This document shows, one piece after another, positions 2,417-9,619 of a DNA stretch of 64,000 bases. Position 1 is the first letter of the stretch, and each line of letters opens with the position of its first letter. The notes under the pieces are model-generated. The model made no database searches. It saw nothing but the letters and a program-made list of their open reading frames with translations, and had not been told where the DNA came from. Source of the DNA: Acidimicrobiaceae bacterium (GTDB taxonomy: Bacteria; Actinomycetota; Acidimicrobiia; Acidimicrobiales; RAAP-2); assembly GCA_003164095.1 (NCBI GenBank), contig PLRX01000089.1:1-64000 (forward strand), read 5' to 3'. Position numbers and translations under genes: made by a program.

Positions 2417-2430
2417 CGAACACATGTTCG
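2417..2430. promoter_or_regulatory. LexA/SOS-box-like palindrome CGAACACATGTTCG
   Basis: CGAAC-ACAT-GTTCG, matching the core of the actinobacterial CGAAC-N4-GTTCG SOS box; lies between the AbrB-like gene and the 2476 ORF. Confidence 0.6.
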
Positions 2431-2475
2431 TGACGGAGCAGCGCCGCAGCCATAACCATGCGAAGGGGACCTCTA

Positions 2476-2868
2476 ATGCCTGATGCGACCGCTCCGGAGC
2501 CTCAGTTCGCCACTTGCAAGTGTGAGGCAGCCGCTCAGCGGGCCGTGCTGGGTTATGAGGTTGCTGGTATCGCTGCCAGCATCGGACCCCTCGACCTGCC
2601 GAGACAGCGGGAGACAAGTTGCCGAGGTTGGGCGGTGACAGTTCCGAGCCTGGGTCGCGTTGAATGTGTTCTTGACTCCCGGGCGGATCTGAACGCTGTT
2701 GGCCCAGAGCTGGATCAACTGAGCAATGCGGGTTGGAGCGTTTGGGCGTTGGTGCCACTCGATCGCCTGTCGCGCGCCCACGAGGCGTTTCAGTCAGGCG
2801 TTGAGTTCGTTCAAGGCTGGTGGGAGAACAACGGGGCCATCGCCTTCACGGCGCCCGAAATCCCCTGA
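2476..2868 (+). CDS. Hypothetical protein (about 130 aa)
   Basis: ORF with purine-rich GAAGGGGA upstream of ATG 2476; ...GRVECVLDSRADLNAVGPELDQLSNAGWSVWALVPLDRLSRAHEAF...; no family confidently recognised. Confidence 0.6.
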   Translation: MPDATAPEPQFATCKCEAAAQRAVLGYEVAGIAASIGPLDLPRQRETSCRGWAVTVPSLGRVECVLDSRADLNAVGPELDQLSNAGWSVWALVPLDRLSRAHEAFQSGVEFVQGWWENNGAIAFTAPEIP

Positions 2869-2939: not shown

Positions 2940-3884
2940 ATGGCACAGGCCATCTATACGCAGACGACCATCGCCATGGTCTGGGATTTTGACAAGACGC
3001 TGATCCCCGGGTACTCCCAGAAACCGATCTTTGAAGAGTACGGAATCGATGAAGCGCGTTTCTGGCGCGAAGTAAACGGCCTCGAGGACCTCTACCGGCG
3101 CCGGGATCTGCTCGTAGCCAAGGACACCGCGTATTTGCTCCACATGCTCTCGTACGTCAGAGAGGGAGCGATGGCCGGTCTCACCAACTCAAAGCTTGTC
3201 GAGCTTGGTGCCCGGATCGAGATGTGCCCTGGGATTCCTGACTTTCTCCCCCACATTCAGGAGCTCGTTGCATCTGACGATCGCTTCGCCAGCCACGGAA
3301 TCTCGGTCGAGCACTACATCGTCTCGACTGGGATCAGGCACCTGATCGAAGGCAGTTCCGTAAGCGCGCACGTTCAGAAGATCTGGGCCAACGAGTTCGT
3401 CGATCAACCTCCCGGCCCAGGCTACGACCCGGCCACCCATGAGTTTGAGGCAAATGATGGAGTGATTGCCCAAGTTGGGTACATGATCGACAACACCTCC
3501 AAAACCAGGGCCATCTTTGAGATCAACAAGGGTCCTGATGTCGAGGTGAATGCTCGGATGGCCGAAGAAGAGAGAAAAGTCCCGATAAAGAACATGATCT
3601 ACATTGCCGATGGGCCGAGCGATGTCCCTGTGTTCTCTGTCGTGGGCGTGAACGGGGGAAGGCGCCTCGGCGTCTATCAGACGGCGGAGCCCTCGAACTT
3701 CGAAGGAGTCAAGCAACTCGAGGACGATGCGAGGGTCGACAGCATTGCAGAGGCGAACTTCATGCAGGGTACGCAAGCGTGGAGGTGGCTTACGTCCGAA
3801 GTCCGACGAATTGGGACAAGGATCTGCGACGATCGAGATCGCTACCTCGCCGCCGTGAAGGCTCCTGCCGGGCACATCACCTAA
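2940..3884 (+). CDS. HAD-superfamily hydrolase/phosphatase-like protein
   Basis: DxDxT nucleophile motif MVWDFDKTLIP near the N-terminus; later YIADGPSDVPVFSVV resembles HAD motif IV. Confidence 0.75.
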   Translation: MAQAIYTQTTIAMVWDFDKTLIPGYSQKPIFEEYGIDEARFWREVNGLEDLYRRRDLLVAKDTAYLLHMLSYVREGAMAGLTNSKLVELGARIEMCPGIPDFLPHIQELVASDDRFASHGISVEHYIVSTGIRHLIEGSSVSAHVQKIWANEFVDQPPGPGYDPATHEFEANDGVIAQVGYMIDNTSKTRAIFEINKGPDVEVNARMAEEERKVPIKNMIYIADGPSDVPVFSVVGVNGGRRLGVYQTAEPSNFEGVKQLEDDARVDSIAEANFMQGTQAWRWLTSEVRRIGTRICDDRDRYLAAVKAPAGHIT

Positions 3885-4031: not shown

Positions 4032-4047
4032 ACGAACACGTGTTCGT
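4032..4047. promoter_or_regulatory. LexA/SOS-box-like perfect palindrome ACGAACACGTGTTCGT upstream of the Ubl cassette
   Basis: 16-bp perfect palindrome containing CGAAC-ACGT-GTTCG, 47 bp upstream of the Ubl ATG at 4095. Confidence 0.65.
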
Positions 4048-4094
4048 GTAAGCTCTGAGTGGTCGGCGTGTGTCGATCGGTCAGGAGAAATGAG

Positions 4095-4367
4095 ATGCCC
4101 CCGGAAGAAGAGACTCAGGCCCATCCGGACCGGTTCGAGATCGTCGTCGACACCGTCGAGCACACCGTGCACGCCGCCGAAGTGAGTTGGAAGCATGTCG
4201 TGGATATCGCGTACCCGGGCCAGGCCGACGACCCGCAATACGTCTTCAAGGTCCAATACGAGGACGCCAGGAGCCATCCCACGTCGGGGACGCTGGTGAA
4301 GGGTCATCACGTAACCGTCGAGCGGAGTGGAACCACATTCAGTGTCCTTCGATCCGTGGTCTCGTAG
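4095..4367 (+). CDS. Ubiquitin-like protein (single multiubiquitin-type domain)
   Basis: 90 aa: RFEIVVDTVEHTVHAAEVSWKHVVDIAYPGQADDPQYVFKVQYED...GTLVKGHHVTVERSGTTFSVLRSVVS, beta-grasp-like pattern with L-x-x-G-x-x-V-x-V and G-T-x-F-x-V ending; AGGAG at 4083; directly followed by a ThiF gene. Confidence 0.75.
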   Translation: MPPEEETQAHPDRFEIVVDTVEHTVHAAEVSWKHVVDIAYPGQADDPQYVFKVQYEDARSHPTSGTLVKGHHVTVERSGTTFSVLRSVVS

Positions 4368-5526
4368 TCCCGACTTAGCGAGGCTCATCGCAGCGGGCTA
4401 CGAGCTGGAGTTGACAGGCGACGGCTACCTGCTCGTACGCAACATCCCGTACTTGGACGAACATCAATCGATCCAACGGGGATCGGTGGTCTCAAAGTTG
4501 GAATTGAATGGTGACGTGACGGTCAATCCAGTGGCTGACCACGTCGCGTATTTCGTGGGCACAACACCACATCGGTGGAACGGCGAGCAGCTGACGCCGC
4601 TGGCCGGTGCCAATCTTGTGCTCGCCGATGGTCGGATTGCTCAGTTTTCGATGTCGCTCAAGTGCCCGACGGAGGATCGCTACCCCGACTACTTCTCGAA
4701 GATCGAGTACCACGTGCAGAACATCGAGAATGAAGCGAAGCAACTCGATGCGGCGGTGACCTCGCAGACGTTCGGCCCATGCATCATCAAGAACGATGAG
4801 TGGCCTTTCGAATATGCCGACACCGCCAGTGGACGTGCGGGAATCGGTGCAACTAACGGACGCCTCGCCGGCCAGAAGATCGCCATTGTTGGCCTCGGCG
4901 GCACCGGCTCCTACATTCTTGATCTCGTCGCGAAGTGTCCGGTTGCCGAAATCCATCTCTACGATGGGGACCGCTTCTCAAGTCATAATGCCTTCCGCTC
5001 GCCCGGAGCGGCGAGCCTGGATGAGGTTCGAATCGGTAGACCGAAGGTCGAACGCTATGCGGAAATCTATTCGCAACTGAAGCGCAGGATCACACCCCAC
5101 CCCTACAACATCGATGCCGCGAATGTCTCAGAACTCGCAGCGTTCGACTTCGTCTTCCTGGCCATGGAGGGAGGAGCGACAAAACTCGCGATCGTCGAAG
5201 CGTTGGAAAACATGGGCAAGCCATTCGTCAATGCCAGCATGGGTGTCAAGAAGCCCGGCGACGGCGACCAGCTTCAGGCAGTCGTTGAAGTGAATGGAAG
5301 CACTGTCGACAACCGTGACAGTTTTCGGCAGACGGTCGACTTCGGGGAGGTTGATCCGGACGATCCGTACCTTGAGAACATTCAGGTTGCCGAACTCAAT
5401 GCCCTCAACGCGACGATGGCCGTTCTCTGGTGGAAGAAGTGGGCGGCGATCTACGTGAGCAACAAGCCAAATTTCGGAATGCTCATTGACACCTACCTCG
5501 ACGTATACACGACGTACCGTTCGTGA
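4327..5526 (+). CDS. ThiF/E1-like adenylyltransferase with DUF6791-type N-terminal domain
   Basis: IAIVGLGGTGSYILDLVAKCPVAEIHLYDGDRFSSHNAFRSPGAASLDEV is the E1/ThiF nucleotide-binding signature; N-terminal YLLVRNIPYLDEHQSIQRGSVVSKLEL and YADTASGRAGIGA match the DUF6791-ThiF architecture. GTG 4327 (or GTG 4342) overlaps the Ubl end. Confidence 0.85.
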   Translation: MEPHSVSFDPWSRSPDLARLIAAGYELELTGDGYLLVRNIPYLDEHQSIQRGSVVSKLELNGDVTVNPVADHVAYFVGTTPHRWNGEQLTPLAGANLVLADGRIAQFSMSLKCPTEDRYPDYFSKIEYHVQNIENEAKQLDAAVTSQTFGPCIIKNDEWPFEYADTASGRAGIGATNGRLAGQKIAIVGLGGTGSYILDLVAKCPVAEIHLYDGDRFSSHNAFRSPGAASLDEVRIGRPKVERYAEIYSQLKRRITPHPYNIDAANVSELAAFDFVFLAMEGGATKLAIVEALENMGKPFVNASMGVKKPGDGDQLQAVVEVNGSTVDNRDSFRQTVDFGEVDPDDPYLENIQVAELNALNATMAVLWWKKWAAIYVSNKPNFGMLIDTYLDVYTTYRS

Positions 5527-5933
5527 TGTCTACGATCACCGAAGTCACTTACGCCTTCGTCGACTCAGCTCCGGGGCAGCTGGAGCCAGGCAAGATCTAC
5601 ATCTCCACGAGGTACCGTGCGATCGTCCACCTCTGCCTTTGCGGGTGCAACGAGAAGGTTCTACTCAGACTTGATCCAGGCGAGTGGAGCTTCACCTTCG
5701 ATGGCCGAACAATCTCCATTCACGATTCCGTTGGCAACGTCGGGCTGCCTTGCCGATCGCACTACTTTGTGCGACGGAACCGGGTCCATTGGTTACCACC
5801 ACTTCTCGAAGTCGATCCTGAGGTGGCACTGGGTCAGAGATCCGCTCGCGACGAACAGAGCGAGAGGTCGACAACAAGGAGCTTTGCTCGCTGGTTCCGT
5901 CGGCGCCGATCCCGCCCTCCAGAAAACGCTTGA
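5526..5933 (+). CDS. DUF6527-family Cys-rich protein, partner of the Ubl/E1 cassette
   Basis: FVDSAPGQLEPGKIYISTRYRAIVHLCLCGCNEKVLLRLDPGEWSFTFDGRTISIHDSVGNVGLPCRSHYFVRRNRVHWL matches the remembered DUF6527 signature; start overlaps the ThiF stop as TGATG at 5524-5528. Confidence 0.8.
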   Translation: MSTITEVTYAFVDSAPGQLEPGKIYISTRYRAIVHLCLCGCNEKVLLRLDPGEWSFTFDGRTISIHDSVGNVGLPCRSHYFVRRNRVHWLPPLLEVDPEVALGQRSARDEQSERSTTRSFARWFRRRRSRPPENA

Positions 5934-5984: not shown

Positions 5985-7226
5985 TTAGCGCTCTGGTGGA
6001 GGACACTCGATACCTGCGATCTGCATGAGCGCACAGAACGTGTCACGAGCTACCTTCCACTCGCCGTCGACGAGGACGGCGCGACCCTGTCGCCCGCGGA
6101 TCATCGGGGTGCCGCTAAAAGGCCCGGAGATGGTGAGGGAGAACACGACGCGGGCCTCGTGGTCATTCACAAATCGCAAGCCATCGACCTTCACCGATCG
6201 CTGGGACGGATCCTGGTCGATGCTGTGGCGTTGACCAGCAGCGAGAAGTGCCTCCCCGAGATTGGCACCTCCTTCGACGGCCGGGATGGAGCCGTCCGCT
6301 TCGTCGACATCGAGCATGCGTGCGAATGCGTCCTCGACGGCAGATCGGGCAGCTGATTCATCGTCTGGAGGTGGGCCAGGGATCGACGACCCGGGGGGAC
6401 CTTGAGGAGTGATCAGCTGGCTCAGCACGGACGAGTCCTGCTTTGGGCCAGGCTCCTGCTGTCGAAGTGCTCGAAGAGTCGCAGCCTGTTCGGATGTGAT
6501 GCCCTGTGACCGTTGCTCTACCGCTTCTTGTGAACTGAGCCCGGCGCCGATCCAATCAGCCACTTCCGCAAAAGGGATTCCGGCCGCCCACCACTCGCGG
6601 ATGACATCCCCTGGGCCGCGACCCTGGATGGCCAAGCGCCCAGCTTCGCCCGGAGTGAGGCCGAGGGCGTGCCACGTGTACGCGTCGGCGGCTTCGATCC
6701 CCATCGCTGCCCATCGCTGAGCTTCCTCATCCAGCCATTGTCTCTGGAGGTAGCCGTGCATGACCCTGGGGTCTCCACGTAGCAATCCACCTGCCATCAC
6801 CTGGCTACCGGTGACCGAAGGTGTCCGGCTGATCCAGGCGCTGGAGCCGAAAGAAGAACTCCGCGACCTGGACTGAGCCTGGGCTTGAGTGAAGGCTTCG
6901 ACTGGACCCAAGCCCTTCGCCTTTTCGGCCGATGCGGTGTCGATGTCGTAACCCATCTCGTGCCACAGGGCAGCTTCCGAGGAGTCGATCCCGGCGTCGC
7001 GCCATGCCTGGATGGTCGTGGGGTCCACCCCTGCCGCCATCCATTGGGCGGCTTCGAGACCCTCCGTCACTCCCTGTTGAATCCATGCTTCTGCACGAGC
7101 GATAGTGAAGCGCCAACTGCGCCAGATCTCGGCGTCACTGGGTTCGAATCCGGCTGCAATCCAGGCTTCCAACTGCTCAGGTTTGCTGTCGTCGGGTTCG
7201 GAGGCATCCACTCGTGTTCGCATCAC
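5985..7226 (-). CDS. Tryptophan-repeat protein (W-x2-AG-I motifs) with C-terminal NTF2-like/Mce-associated-like domain
   Basis: Repeated EAWIAAGFEPSDAEIW, QAWRDAGIDSSEAALWHEMGY, QRWAAMGIEAADAYTWHALGL, REWWAAGIPFAEVADWIGAGL; C-terminal VVFSLTISG...GRAVLVDGEWKVARDTFCALMQIAGIECPP. Confidence 0.65.
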   Translation of the reverse strand: MMRTRVDASEPDDSKPEQLEAWIAAGFEPSDAEIWRSWRFTIARAEAWIQQGVTEGLEAAQWMAAGVDPTTIQAWRDAGIDSSEAALWHEMGYDIDTASAEKAKGLGPVEAFTQAQAQSRSRSSSFGSSAWISRTPSVTGSQVMAGGLLRGDPRVMHGYLQRQWLDEEAQRWAAMGIEAADAYTWHALGLTPGEAGRLAIQGRGPGDVIREWWAAGIPFAEVADWIGAGLSSQEAVEQRSQGITSEQAATLRALRQQEPGPKQDSSVLSQLITPQGPPGSSIPGPPPDDESAARSAVEDAFARMLDVDEADGSIPAVEGGANLGEALLAAGQRHSIDQDPSQRSVKVDGLRFVNDHEARVVFSLTISGPFSGTPMIRGRQGRAVLVDGEWKVARDTFCALMQIAGIECPPPER

Positions 7227-7239
7227 TTGGACCTCGTGG

Positions 7240-8526
7240 TCACGCCGCGTCAGCCGCGCCGATGTCGATTGCTCGGGCCCACTCCGGGACGGACCCGCGC
7301 GGGTCCATCAGCCCGACGATCACGCGGATGCCCTTAGGCGCTGCCGCAGGCCATGGTGTGTGCCCGTCCGTCAGGACGACGATCAAGTCCGGCTTCGGGC
7401 GGAGCTCGGCCGCCTTGGCAAGCCCAACTCCCATGTCGGTTCCACCACCTCCGAGGAGGATGACGTCCTTGGCCTGCATCACCTTCTGCGCCTCGAAGGC
7501 CTCGGCATCGCAGCAGATGATGTCGAGCTGTCGACGTCCCACTCCCAGACTCCGGAGGACTCCGCCTACTTCCGCCAGGGACTGGGCGAGCATCCCGTCG
7601 TTCATGCTTCCCGAGGTGTCCAAGACCATGGCCACCTTCGGCAGAGGCTGGCGGAGACTCGGAAGGATCACGTCGCCCGAGATGGAGGACCGCCGAGATG
7701 GCTTGCGGTAGCTGAAGTCGACGCGACCGGCCACATCGGCCACGCCGCGACGCACTGCTGCAGCCAGTACCTGCTGCCATCGCACCGTCGGCTCGAGGAG
7801 TTCGCTGGCCCAGCGCTGCCAGCCGGCGGGCGTGTTCCCATAGAGCTGCTGGTGCTCTTTGATCTGCCGCGCGACCTCTCGCTCCAGGAGCTTCTGTGCT
7901 GCATCGGCGAGTCCTGAGCGATCGCTGTCCCAGGGCCGGCCCTGCCCGTCGCAGCCGCTCCCGCAATCTCCCTGGGACTGGTCATCCAGCCGCCCTGGTG
8001 GGAGCTGGAGATCCACAGCGCCCCCGAGGGCATCCCAATACTGTTCAGCGGTCCAACCGTCAGCGAGGCCAAGGGCGTGCGGAGTGACCGCGCCGTCCGG
8101 TCTCTTGGTTGTCCCAGCGACCAGATCATCGTTGATCTCCGCATCGGCCGCAGTGTTCCAACGTCGTTGGTCGGGATTGCCCTCGCTGACTGGTGCTTGA
8201 TGGCCGGACACCTCCCGGCATGGGAAGCGATCGCCATGGTGACGGAGCAAATGGCTGACCTGGTGGATCAACCAGAACCCCGTGGTCGGCACGTCCAACT
8301 CACTCATGACCTCAGGATCGAGGTACACATGCCACGACTGGTCGACGGGCAGCGCAGAGAGATCAAGTCGCTGGTCCGGGTGAAGGTCTAACTGGTCGAC
8401 GACGATGGGTTCGAGGGACAACAGAGCGCTCGCCATGTACGGCACCTGGTGCGCCGCCCACACGCGTGCGGCGGCCCACAGCCGCCGTTCTGTGGGACCC
8501 AACATGTCAAGCGATCCCTGTTTCAC
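7240..8526 (-). CDS. DUF2201-like VWA protein (metallopeptidase-like N-terminus plus von Willebrand A domain)
   Basis: MIDAS motif VAMVLDTSGSMNDG, GGGGTDMGVGL; N-terminal WLIHQVSHLLRHHGDRF resembles the zincin-like segment of this family. Confidence 0.75.
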   Translation of the reverse strand: MKQGSLDMLGPTERRLWAAARVWAAHQVPYMASALLSLEPIVVDQLDLHPDQRLDLSALPVDQSWHVYLDPEVMSELDVPTTGFWLIHQVSHLLRHHGDRFPCREVSGHQAPVSEGNPDQRRWNTAADAEINDDLVAGTTKRPDGAVTPHALGLADGWTAEQYWDALGGAVDLQLPPGRLDDQSQGDCGSGCDGQGRPWDSDRSGLADAAQKLLEREVARQIKEHQQLYGNTPAGWQRWASELLEPTVRWQQVLAAAVRRGVADVAGRVDFSYRKPSRRSSISGDVILPSLRQPLPKVAMVLDTSGSMNDGMLAQSLAEVGGVLRSLGVGRRQLDIICCDAEAFEAQKVMQAKDVILLGGGGTDMGVGLAKAAELRPKPDLIVVLTDGHTPWPAAAPKGIRVIVGLMDPRGSVPEWARAIDIGAADAA

Positions 8527-9619
8527 CTGGCCCCTCCCCGCTCAGAAGTCCTGCCGCTCGCAGGACGGGAGCGATCTCCAAGAGTCCACTCGGGAGCTCC
8601 GCTCCATCCGGGCGTGCTCCGGCCAACGCGCGCGCCGCCAGCGTGGCCACATCGGGTGCTTTCACGGCCACTCTCGCCACAACGCGCCATGCCGCGCTCC
8701 AGGATGCCGCATCCCCGTGGGCAATGGCGACGGTGGCGACAGCCGTCAAGACTGCGAAGGCTCGGTCGCTTCGTTCGGGAAGTTCGAAGCCGTCCGGATC
8801 GGCCAGGACCGCCTCAGGATCAGGCAAGTCCATGTTGGCCAGCCACGATAGGAACTCGATACCGGCGCCCTCGCCGACCGCGCCGATGACCAGGTGCATC
8901 CGGGCGCTTTCCGATGCGCCCACGGCATCACAGGTGGCGAGCAGCGTGGCCACCGAATCCCAGCTGCGAGGGCTCGGCCATCCTCGTCCAGCCTGATCGG
9001 CGATCTGGGGCACCTGGAGTGCCAGTGCCGGCCGCACCTCCAGAAACGCTCCGACGGCCGCCCTCACGGCCAGAGTCTGGGCATCGGACGGCGTGTGCCC
9101 CTCAAATACGGGCGGCGCACCGAAGCCCATGGCGATGCCCTTGGCCACGGCCTTCGCATCAACAGGCCAGTCCAGGTGGACCAGGCGATTCGCCAGGGGT
9201 GCTGACAGCTGCCATCCGTCGGCCGCCTCCTCGGGGGGATTGGCAGCTGCCACCACGCGGACGCTCTCGGGAAGGGCGAGATCGCCGACCACCCGCTCAA
9301 GCACGACCCGAAGCATTGCCGCCTGCACTGCGGGCGGGGCTGTCGTCAACTCGTCCAAGAAGAGCAGGCCGTGACCGGACGCGGCCAGCCTCCTCGCCCA
9401 GAGCGGCGGTGCCATCTGGACGGCCCCATCGATCACAACCGGTAGGCCGGCAAAGTCGGCAGGCTCGCGGATAGAGCCGATCACGACTTCGGTCGGCCAG
9501 CCAAGGGCCTCACCGAGAGCGCGTACGACCGATGTCTTGCCCGTGCCAGGACTCCCCCAGAGAAGAACCGGTACACCCGCCTGGACCGAGATGGACAGGG
9601 CCTCACTCACTGATGACAC
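8507..9619 (-). CDS. MoxR-type AAA+ ATPase
   Basis: Walker A LLWGSPGTGKTSVVRAL, Walker B HGLLFLDELTTAPPAVQAAMLRVVLE, sensor VRVVAAANPPEEAADGWQLSAPLANRLVHL. Confidence 0.85.
   Translation of the reverse strand: MSSVSEALSISVQAGVPVLLWGSPGTGKTSVVRALGEALGWPTEVVIGSIREPADFAGLPVVIDGAVQMAPPLWARRLAASGHGLLFLDELTTAPPAVQAAMLRVVLERVVGDLALPESVRVVAAANPPEEAADGWQLSAPLANRLVHLDWPVDAKAVAKGIAMGFGAPPVFEGHTPSDAQTLAVRAAVGAFLEVRPALALQVPQIADQAGRGWPSPRSWDSVATLLATCDAVGASESARMHLVIGAVGEGAGIEFLSWLANMDLPDPEAVLADPDGFELPERSDRAFAVLTAVATVAIAHGDAASWSAAWRVVARVAVKAPDVATLAARALAGARPDGAELPSGLLEIAPVLRAAGLLSGEGPGETGIA

What the first reader, a model, noticed from the sequence alone, without database searches (positions are those of the whole stretch)
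4032..4047. Perfect LexA/SOS-box-like palindrome directly upstream of the Ubl operon
ACGAACACGTGTTCGT is a 16-bp perfect palindrome containing CGAAC-N4-GTTCG, the core of the mycobacterial/actinobacterial SOS box. It lies 47 bp upstream of the Ubl ATG, in a promoter-proximal position. This predicts that the Ubl/E1 system is DNA-damage inducible, a testable link between a prokaryotic ubiquitin-like pathway and the SOS response.
Basis: partly seen in the sequence, partly recalled or inferred. Interest (0 to 1): 0.86.

Follow-up and report, generated by a model that had tools for sequence, protein, structure and literature searches.

The report
SOS switch on ubiquitin-like operon
A short DNA switch in front of a bacterial ubiquitin-like gene cluster matches the switch this bacterium's own DNA-damage repressor (LexA) uses on its repair genes, so the cluster is probably turned on by DNA damage, a job done in most of its relatives by a different, locally encoded damage sensor.

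Summary
4032-4047 is a perfect palindrome holding CGAAC-N4-GTTCG, 47 bp before the Ubl ATG. The host lexA has two perfect copies and two near copies of this box upstream, and ruvC, imuA', an alkB-like gene and a DEDDh-exonuclease gene carry it at their promoters. The box plus a -10 element 1-3 bp later occurs only five times in the 3.7-Mb genome, once at the Ubl operon. The closest ortholog (80% E1 identity) keeps the box (one mismatch) and the -10 in otherwise diverged DNA. A second perfect box (2417-2430) heads a gene pair whose second gene is a candidate phage-defence gene (PDC-S34). The box is not general: of 87 cassettes examined only three carry it. At least 59 instead have an ImmA/IrrE peptidase, usually with an XRE repressor, resembling the damage-activated CapH-CapP switch. 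Best reading: here the core SOS repressor has taken the place of the usual local damage switch on a Bub/Cap2-like E2-E1-Ubl cassette. Damage control of bacterial Ubl operons is already reported; direct LexA control appears new. Induction and LexA binding were not testable here.

The parts
4032..4047 (.). LexA operator (SOS box), 16-bp perfect palindrome ACGAACACGTGTTCGT; core 4033-4046
   Evidence: Sequence; same motif at host lexA, ruvC, imuA' and others; conserved at the same place in ortholog L038
4049..4054 (+). Predicted -10 element TAAGCT (TANNNT), 2 bp after the core box; the operator would sit in the promoter spacer
   Evidence: Same spacing of TANNNT at the alkB-like, exonuclease and two other host SOS-type promoters, at recA and imuA' of related genomes, and in L038 and L039; inferred, no transcript data
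4083..4087 (+). Ribosome-binding site AGGAG for the Ubl gene
   Evidence: Sequence, 7 nt before ATG 4095
4095..4367 (+). Ubiquitin-like protein (Multi_ubiq, single domain, 90 aa, no diglycine end; C-terminal Ser conserved)
   Evidence: Pfam PF14452 7.5e-09; PDB relative 9cd2; alignment
4327..5526 (+). E1-like protein with N-terminal DUF6791 domain (weakly E2/UEV-like by predicted fold) and C-terminal ThiF/E1 adenylation domain
   Evidence: Pfam PF20590 8e-36, PF00899 1e-14; predicted structure, E1 part like BubCD Z 21.2 and ThiF Z 20.8, N-terminal part like E2/UEV folds and Cap2 E2 at Z about 5
5523..5933 (+). DUF6527 protein (conserved CxCGC...C, zinc-site-like), third gene of the operon
   Evidence: Pfam PF20137 2.2e-19; three-gene order conserved across phyla
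2417..2430 (.). Second LexA box, CGAACACATGTTCG, 27 bp before the next gene pair
   Evidence: best PWM score in the window. No TANNNT directly after it
2458..2868 (+). Unknown 136-aa protein, first gene of a pair conserved in the class
   Evidence: Homologs lie directly upstream of the HAD gene in many genomes of the class
2940..3884 (+). HAD-family phosphatase, candidate phage-defence gene (PDC-S34)
   Evidence: Pfam HAD 8.7e-08; PADLOC PDC-S34 8.2e-53

Best explanation
4032-4047 is an operator of the host's LexA repressor. In undamaged cells LexA sits in the promoter spacer of the Ubl operon (box 4033-4046, -10 at 4049-4054) and blocks it. DNA damage, or phage replication that leaves single-stranded DNA, lets RecA trigger LexA self-cleavage, and the Ubl / E2-like-E1 / DUF6527 operon is made together with the repair genes. 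A second LexA box at 2417 probably does the same for the neighbouring unknown-HAD (PDC-S34) pair, so this foreign island has two SOS-controlled candidate stress or defence operons. In most relatives the same damage-inducible logic is probably supplied by an XRE repressor and ImmA/IrrE peptidase encoded beside the cassette; here that pair is missing and the host SOS repressor stands in. Shown: motif identity, host LexA motif, promoter architecture, conservation in L038, absence of the local pair. Inferred: LexA binding, repression, induction, and the purpose of the modification.
For: Host lexA (TIGR00498 7e-68; cleavage Ala-Gly and Ser/Lys residues visible by eye) has two perfect and two near boxes upstream. 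The same box is at ruvC, imuA', an alkB-like 2OG oxygenase and a DEDDh exonuclease with GIY-YIG domain. Box + 1-3 bp + TANNNT is found five times in 3.7 Mb, about 0.08 expected. Nearest ortholog L038 keeps 13 of 14 box bases and TAGACT at the same offset while the flanks diverge; its box fits the ChIP-derived Streptomyces consensus tCGAAC-N4-GNNCGa (PMC9380542), and its host's own lexA box also has one mismatch. L039 has a perfect box with TAGGCT pointing toward the Ubl. Low GC (57-60% against about 70%) marks an acquired island. XRE/M78 pair beside most other cassettes, absent here.
Against: No binding or expression data. The bare motif is not over-represented genome-wide (19 found, about 17 modelled), so single sites can be chance. 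The box is absent from other actinobacterial cassettes, including four in the same class with the XRE/M78 pair. The second box lacks the -10 downstream and is not seen upstream of homologs of its gene pair. A sigma-70 consensus scan found no promoter, though it does not cover actinobacterial promoters. Gene starts and promoter positions were read by eye.
Confidence: 0.84

Rival explanations
1. Chance palindrome: GC-rich coding bias makes CGAAC-N4-GTTCG common, and this one has no regulatory role.
For: 19 perfect sites in the genome is what a Markov model of the sequence predicts; several sites lie inside coding sequence.
Against: R-N2-Y subtype at a promoter with a -10 at fixed spacing (about 0.08 such composites expected genome-wide, five found, four others at gene starts); conservation in L038 in diverged DNA; a second box 1.6 kb away.
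Confidence: 0.08
2. The palindrome is the operator of a different repressor (for example a plasmid- or ICE-borne XRE or LexA-like protein) that merely resembles the SOS box.
For: Most relatives are flanked by an XRE regulator; the island looks mobile (GC dip; plasmid copies).
Against: No XRE/M78 pair beside the window cassette; the sequence matches the host lexA, ruvC and imuA' boxes, and its spacing to the -10 matches other SOS-type promoters. TIGR00498 finds a single LexA in the genome.
Confidence: 0.06
3. LexA binds, but SOS control serves the mobile element (timing with transfer or excision) rather than a damage or phage response by the Ubl pathway.
For: One small ORF at the contig edge (1434-1754) resembles DUF6112 below the Pfam cut-off; 83 of 117 plasmids with a homologous cassette are mobilizable or conjugative; damage-triggered ICE control by ImmA-type peptidases is established (recalled knowledge).
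Against: The two boxes head a defence-candidate gene pair and the Ubl cassette; none was found at a recognisable transfer gene in the window. Relatives carry damage switches both on plasmids and on chromosomes.
Confidence: 0.15

Closest known systems
Actinobacterial LexA regulon (Streptomyces venezuelae LexA ChIP-seq, PMC9380542)
   Same: Same palindrome (tCGAAC-N4-GNNCGa there; CGAAC-N4-GTTCG here) at promoters of lexA and repair genes
   Different: The words ubiquitin and ThiF do not occur in the main text of that paper; here a Ubl-E1 operon carries the box
CapH-CapP, CapW and CapK-CapS controlled immune operons, including Bub operons (PMC13373217)
   Same: Ubl/E1 operons placed under DNA-damage control at the transcriptional level; most relatives of this cassette have an XRE + M78 pair like CapH-CapP
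   Different: Those use a dedicated regulator encoded beside the operon; here no such pair is present and the host LexA box takes the role. LexA is not mentioned in that paper
Bub pathway (BubA/BubB/BubCD; PDB 9ea4, 9eav)
   Same: Top structural match of the E1 domain is BubCD (Z 21.2, tied with ThiF); compact Ubl-E1 operon
   Different: Sequence match to BubCD is weak (1.2e-05); gene set here is Multi_ubiq + DUF6791-ThiF + DUF6527
Type II CBASS Cap2 (E2-E1 fusion)
   Same: Order of domains: E2-like fold then E1; N-terminal domain aligns with the Cap2 E2 part (7to3, Z 4.9)
   Different: No nucleotide cyclase found beside it; no cysteine is invariant in the E1-protein alignments; low Z
PADLOC PDC-S34
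   Same: HAD gene 2940-3884 matches at 8e-53
   Different: Candidate only; no mechanism known to me

Membership tests
LexA operator (SOS box) of the actinobacterial type | Palindrome CGAAC-N4-GTTCG or close variant | tested here: met
   Perfect at 4033-4046
LexA operator (SOS box) of the actinobacterial type | Same motif upstream of the host's own lexA | tested here: met
   Two perfect and two near boxes at L016 2160-2290
LexA operator (SOS box) of the actinobacterial type | Same motif upstream of host recA | tested here: inconclusive
   Host recA starts at a contig edge; present at recA of related genome G755
LexA operator (SOS box) of the actinobacterial type | Overlaps the promoter of the controlled gene | tested here: met
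   TANNNT 2 bp after the core, as at other SOS-type promoters here; transcription start not mapped
LexA operator (SOS box) of the actinobacterial type | Bound by LexA and derepressed by DNA damage | not testable with these tools
   Needs EMSA/ChIP and RT-qPCR
CapH-CapP controlled operon | XRE repressor and M78 peptidase encoded beside the operon | tested here: not met
   Absent in the window; present by HExxH-bearing M78 hit in 59 of 87 cassettes, 41 of 41 checked members confirmed by Pfam
Bub operon | E1 domain homologous to BubCD | tested here: inconclusive
   Best structural match but weak sequence match, tied with ThiF
Bub operon | Full gene set BubA-BubB-BubCD | not tested
   The defining papers (Gong 2025, Ye 2026) are not in the held library
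Canonical E1-Ubl conjugation | Ubl ending in glycine, catalytic cysteine in E1/E2 | tested here: not met
   Ubl ends in conserved Ser without diglycine; no invariant Cys in 17- and 30-sequence alignments of the E1 protein

The most novel reading that the evidence does not exclude
A ubiquitin-like modification pathway is a full member of a core bacterial SOS regulon: LexA has displaced the dedicated CapH-CapP-type damage switch, and the modification acts in the damage response itself rather than only against phage.
Probability: 0.2. Interest if true: 0.8.

Novelty: new variant of a known kind. Interest (0 to 1): 0.56.

Why it matters
Bacterial Ubl-E1 operons are known or suspected immune or stress systems and are often wired to DNA damage by a dedicated regulator beside them. 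This case suggests that the wiring, not the regulator, is what is kept: when the local switch is absent, the host's central SOS repressor can do the job. It gives a simple test (one operator, one repressor, one inducer) of whether Ubl modification belongs to the damage response, and a sequence signature (LexA box + 1-3 bp + TANNNT) to find further SOS-controlled defence genes.

Tried and rejected
General conservation of a LexA box: CGAAC-N4-GTTCG (up to one mismatch), proteobacterial CTGT-N8-ACAG and alphaproteobacterial GTTC-N7-GTTC scans of 700 bp upstream of 83 cassettes found no convincing box beyond L038; the 1-mismatch hits (9, against 5 and 1 for two control patterns) include several inside the Ubl gene. 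The PWM hit in L044 lies inside the M78 gene and was discarded. Counting bare perfect sites as proof of a regulon was dropped after Markov models predicted the same number. Phage records gave no relative of the E1, and IMG/VR only one. The WYL and kinase regulator classes were checked only in part: one WYL protein (L089), and ATPase/winged-HTH layouts in L057 and the Cytobacillus plasmid that might be CapK-CapS. Fold matches of the DUF6791 domain alone are nearly all E2/UEV proteins but at Z about 5, with no Foldseek match at E below 0.001: suggestive only.

Full report
What is there. ACGAACACGTGTTCGT at 4032-4047 is real and lies 47 bp before the ATG of a 90-aa Multi_ubiq protein. That gene overlaps a 399-aa DUF6791-ThiF protein, which overlaps a DUF6527 protein: one three-gene operon, 4095-5933. 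A second perfect core, CGAACACATGTTCG, lies at 2417-2430, 27 bp before a gene pair (2458-2868, 2940-3884). The second gene of the pair is a HAD phosphatase matching PADLOC PDC-S34 at 8e-53. The pair is real: its two genes are neighbours in many genomes of the same class. GC falls to 57-60% over 2-6 kb against about 70% beyond 13 kb, so this is probably acquired DNA.

Is it more than chance? The bare core alone is not. The genome has 19 perfect copies, and order-2 and order-3 Markov models predict 16-18. Three things lift the Ubl site out of this background. First, the subtype CGAAC-R-N2-Y-GTTCG occurs ten times (about 5 predicted). As I read gene starts, all ten lie at or just before a start: alkB-like, DEDDh exonuclease, a PcfJ-like gene, ruvC, lexA, imuA', an unknown gene, a DUF3048 gene and the two window sites. 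Second, the core followed after 1-3 bp by TANNNT, a -10 element, occurs five times in the genome, never in the reversed control, with about 0.08 expected. Only 0.5% of random positions have TANNNT so close. The Ubl promoter is one of the five. Third, the box is conserved in the nearest ortholog, L038 (80% E1 identity): CGAACACGTGATCG with TAGACT at the same offset, in otherwise diverged upstream DNA.

Does the host LexA use this motif? Yes. The single lexA (TIGR00498, 7e-68) has two perfect and two near boxes in the region it shares with a divergent LysM gene, an arrangement I recall from mycobacteria. The recA upstream region is missing because recA starts at a contig edge, but in related genome G755 recA, lexA, ruvC and imuA' all have the box (the ruvC, recA and imuA' names there rest on reading the translations). 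In G753, host of L038, lexA's own box also has one mismatch, so the L038 variant is plausible. It fits the ChIP-derived Streptomyces consensus tCGAAC-N4-GNNCGa (PMC9380542).

What happens in relatives? I examined 87 orthologous cassettes from many phyla. At least 59 have an ImmA/IrrE-type (M78) peptidase with HExxH close upstream, usually with an XRE regulator fused or adjacent and divergent; 41 of 41 checked are PF06114. NCBI annotation of plasmid copies agrees. This layout is that of CapH-CapP, in which DNA damage activates the peptidase to cleave the repressor; 219 of 544 Bub operons are reported to be associated with CapH-CapP or CapW (PMC13373217). The window cassette and L038 lack the pair and have the LexA box. 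L039, from the same class, has both. The other actinobacterial cassettes examined have no LexA box before the Ubl. So the LexA box is a rare, lineage-restricted form of a common theme.

What does the operon do? The E1 part is closest in predicted structure to BubCD (Z 21.2) and ThiF (Z 20.8). The DUF6791 part, predicted alone (pLDDT 87.7), matches almost only E2/UEV folds, Cap2's E2 part among them, but at Z about 5. No cysteine is invariant across the E1 alignments, and the Ubl ends in a conserved Ser with no diglycine, so the chemistry is probably non-canonical. Whether it is a Bub operon in the strict sense could not be tested: the defining papers are not held.

Mechanism. Best reading: LexA represses from the promoter spacer; RecA activated by single-stranded DNA causes LexA cleavage and turns on the operon, and likewise the unknown-HAD pair at 2417. 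Shown are motif, host motif, promoter geometry and local conservation. Binding, induction and biological purpose are inferred.

Defence context. L038's cassette lies next to type I restriction-modification genes hsdM and hsdS. In G754, another LexA box with the -10 signature heads a gene whose start resembles HsdR (weak, 3.9e-04). SOS control of defence-type genes may be a habit of this group.

Verdict. Observation confirmed; interpretation supported as a prediction. The link between Ubl operons and DNA damage is not new in itself, but direct LexA control in place of the local damage switch was not found in the papers searched and appears to be new. It is not conserved widely, and no experiment has been done.

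Noticed in passing
   Followed up: yes
4327-4827 (DUF6791 part of the E1 gene): Predicted fold matches almost only E2/UEV domains, including Cap2's E2 part, at Z about 5; DUF6791 may be an E2-like domain without a conserved catalytic cysteine.
   Followed up: partly
4095-4367 and orthologs: Ubl C-terminus is an invariant Ser with no glycine pair, and the E1 protein has no invariant cysteine: chemistry probably non-canonical.
   Followed up: partly
L187 1493-1514 and 1210-1473 (genome G754): LexA box plus -10 upstream of a gene whose N-terminus resembles HsdR (type I restriction), weak match.
   Followed up: partly
L048, L078, L114 upstream of the Ubl: Cassettes without the XRE/M78 pair have a large subtilase (S8) gene just upstream, a possible alternative protease partner or regulator.
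   Followed up: no
5985-9619: AAA (MoxR-like) ATPase and DUF2201 metallopeptidase/VWA protein followed by a large unknown gene, a possible further system beside the island.
   Followed up: no
L084 3717-5573: Ubl cassette of an Acidimicrobiales MAG preceded by a Rad50/SMC-like ATPase gene.
   Followed up: no
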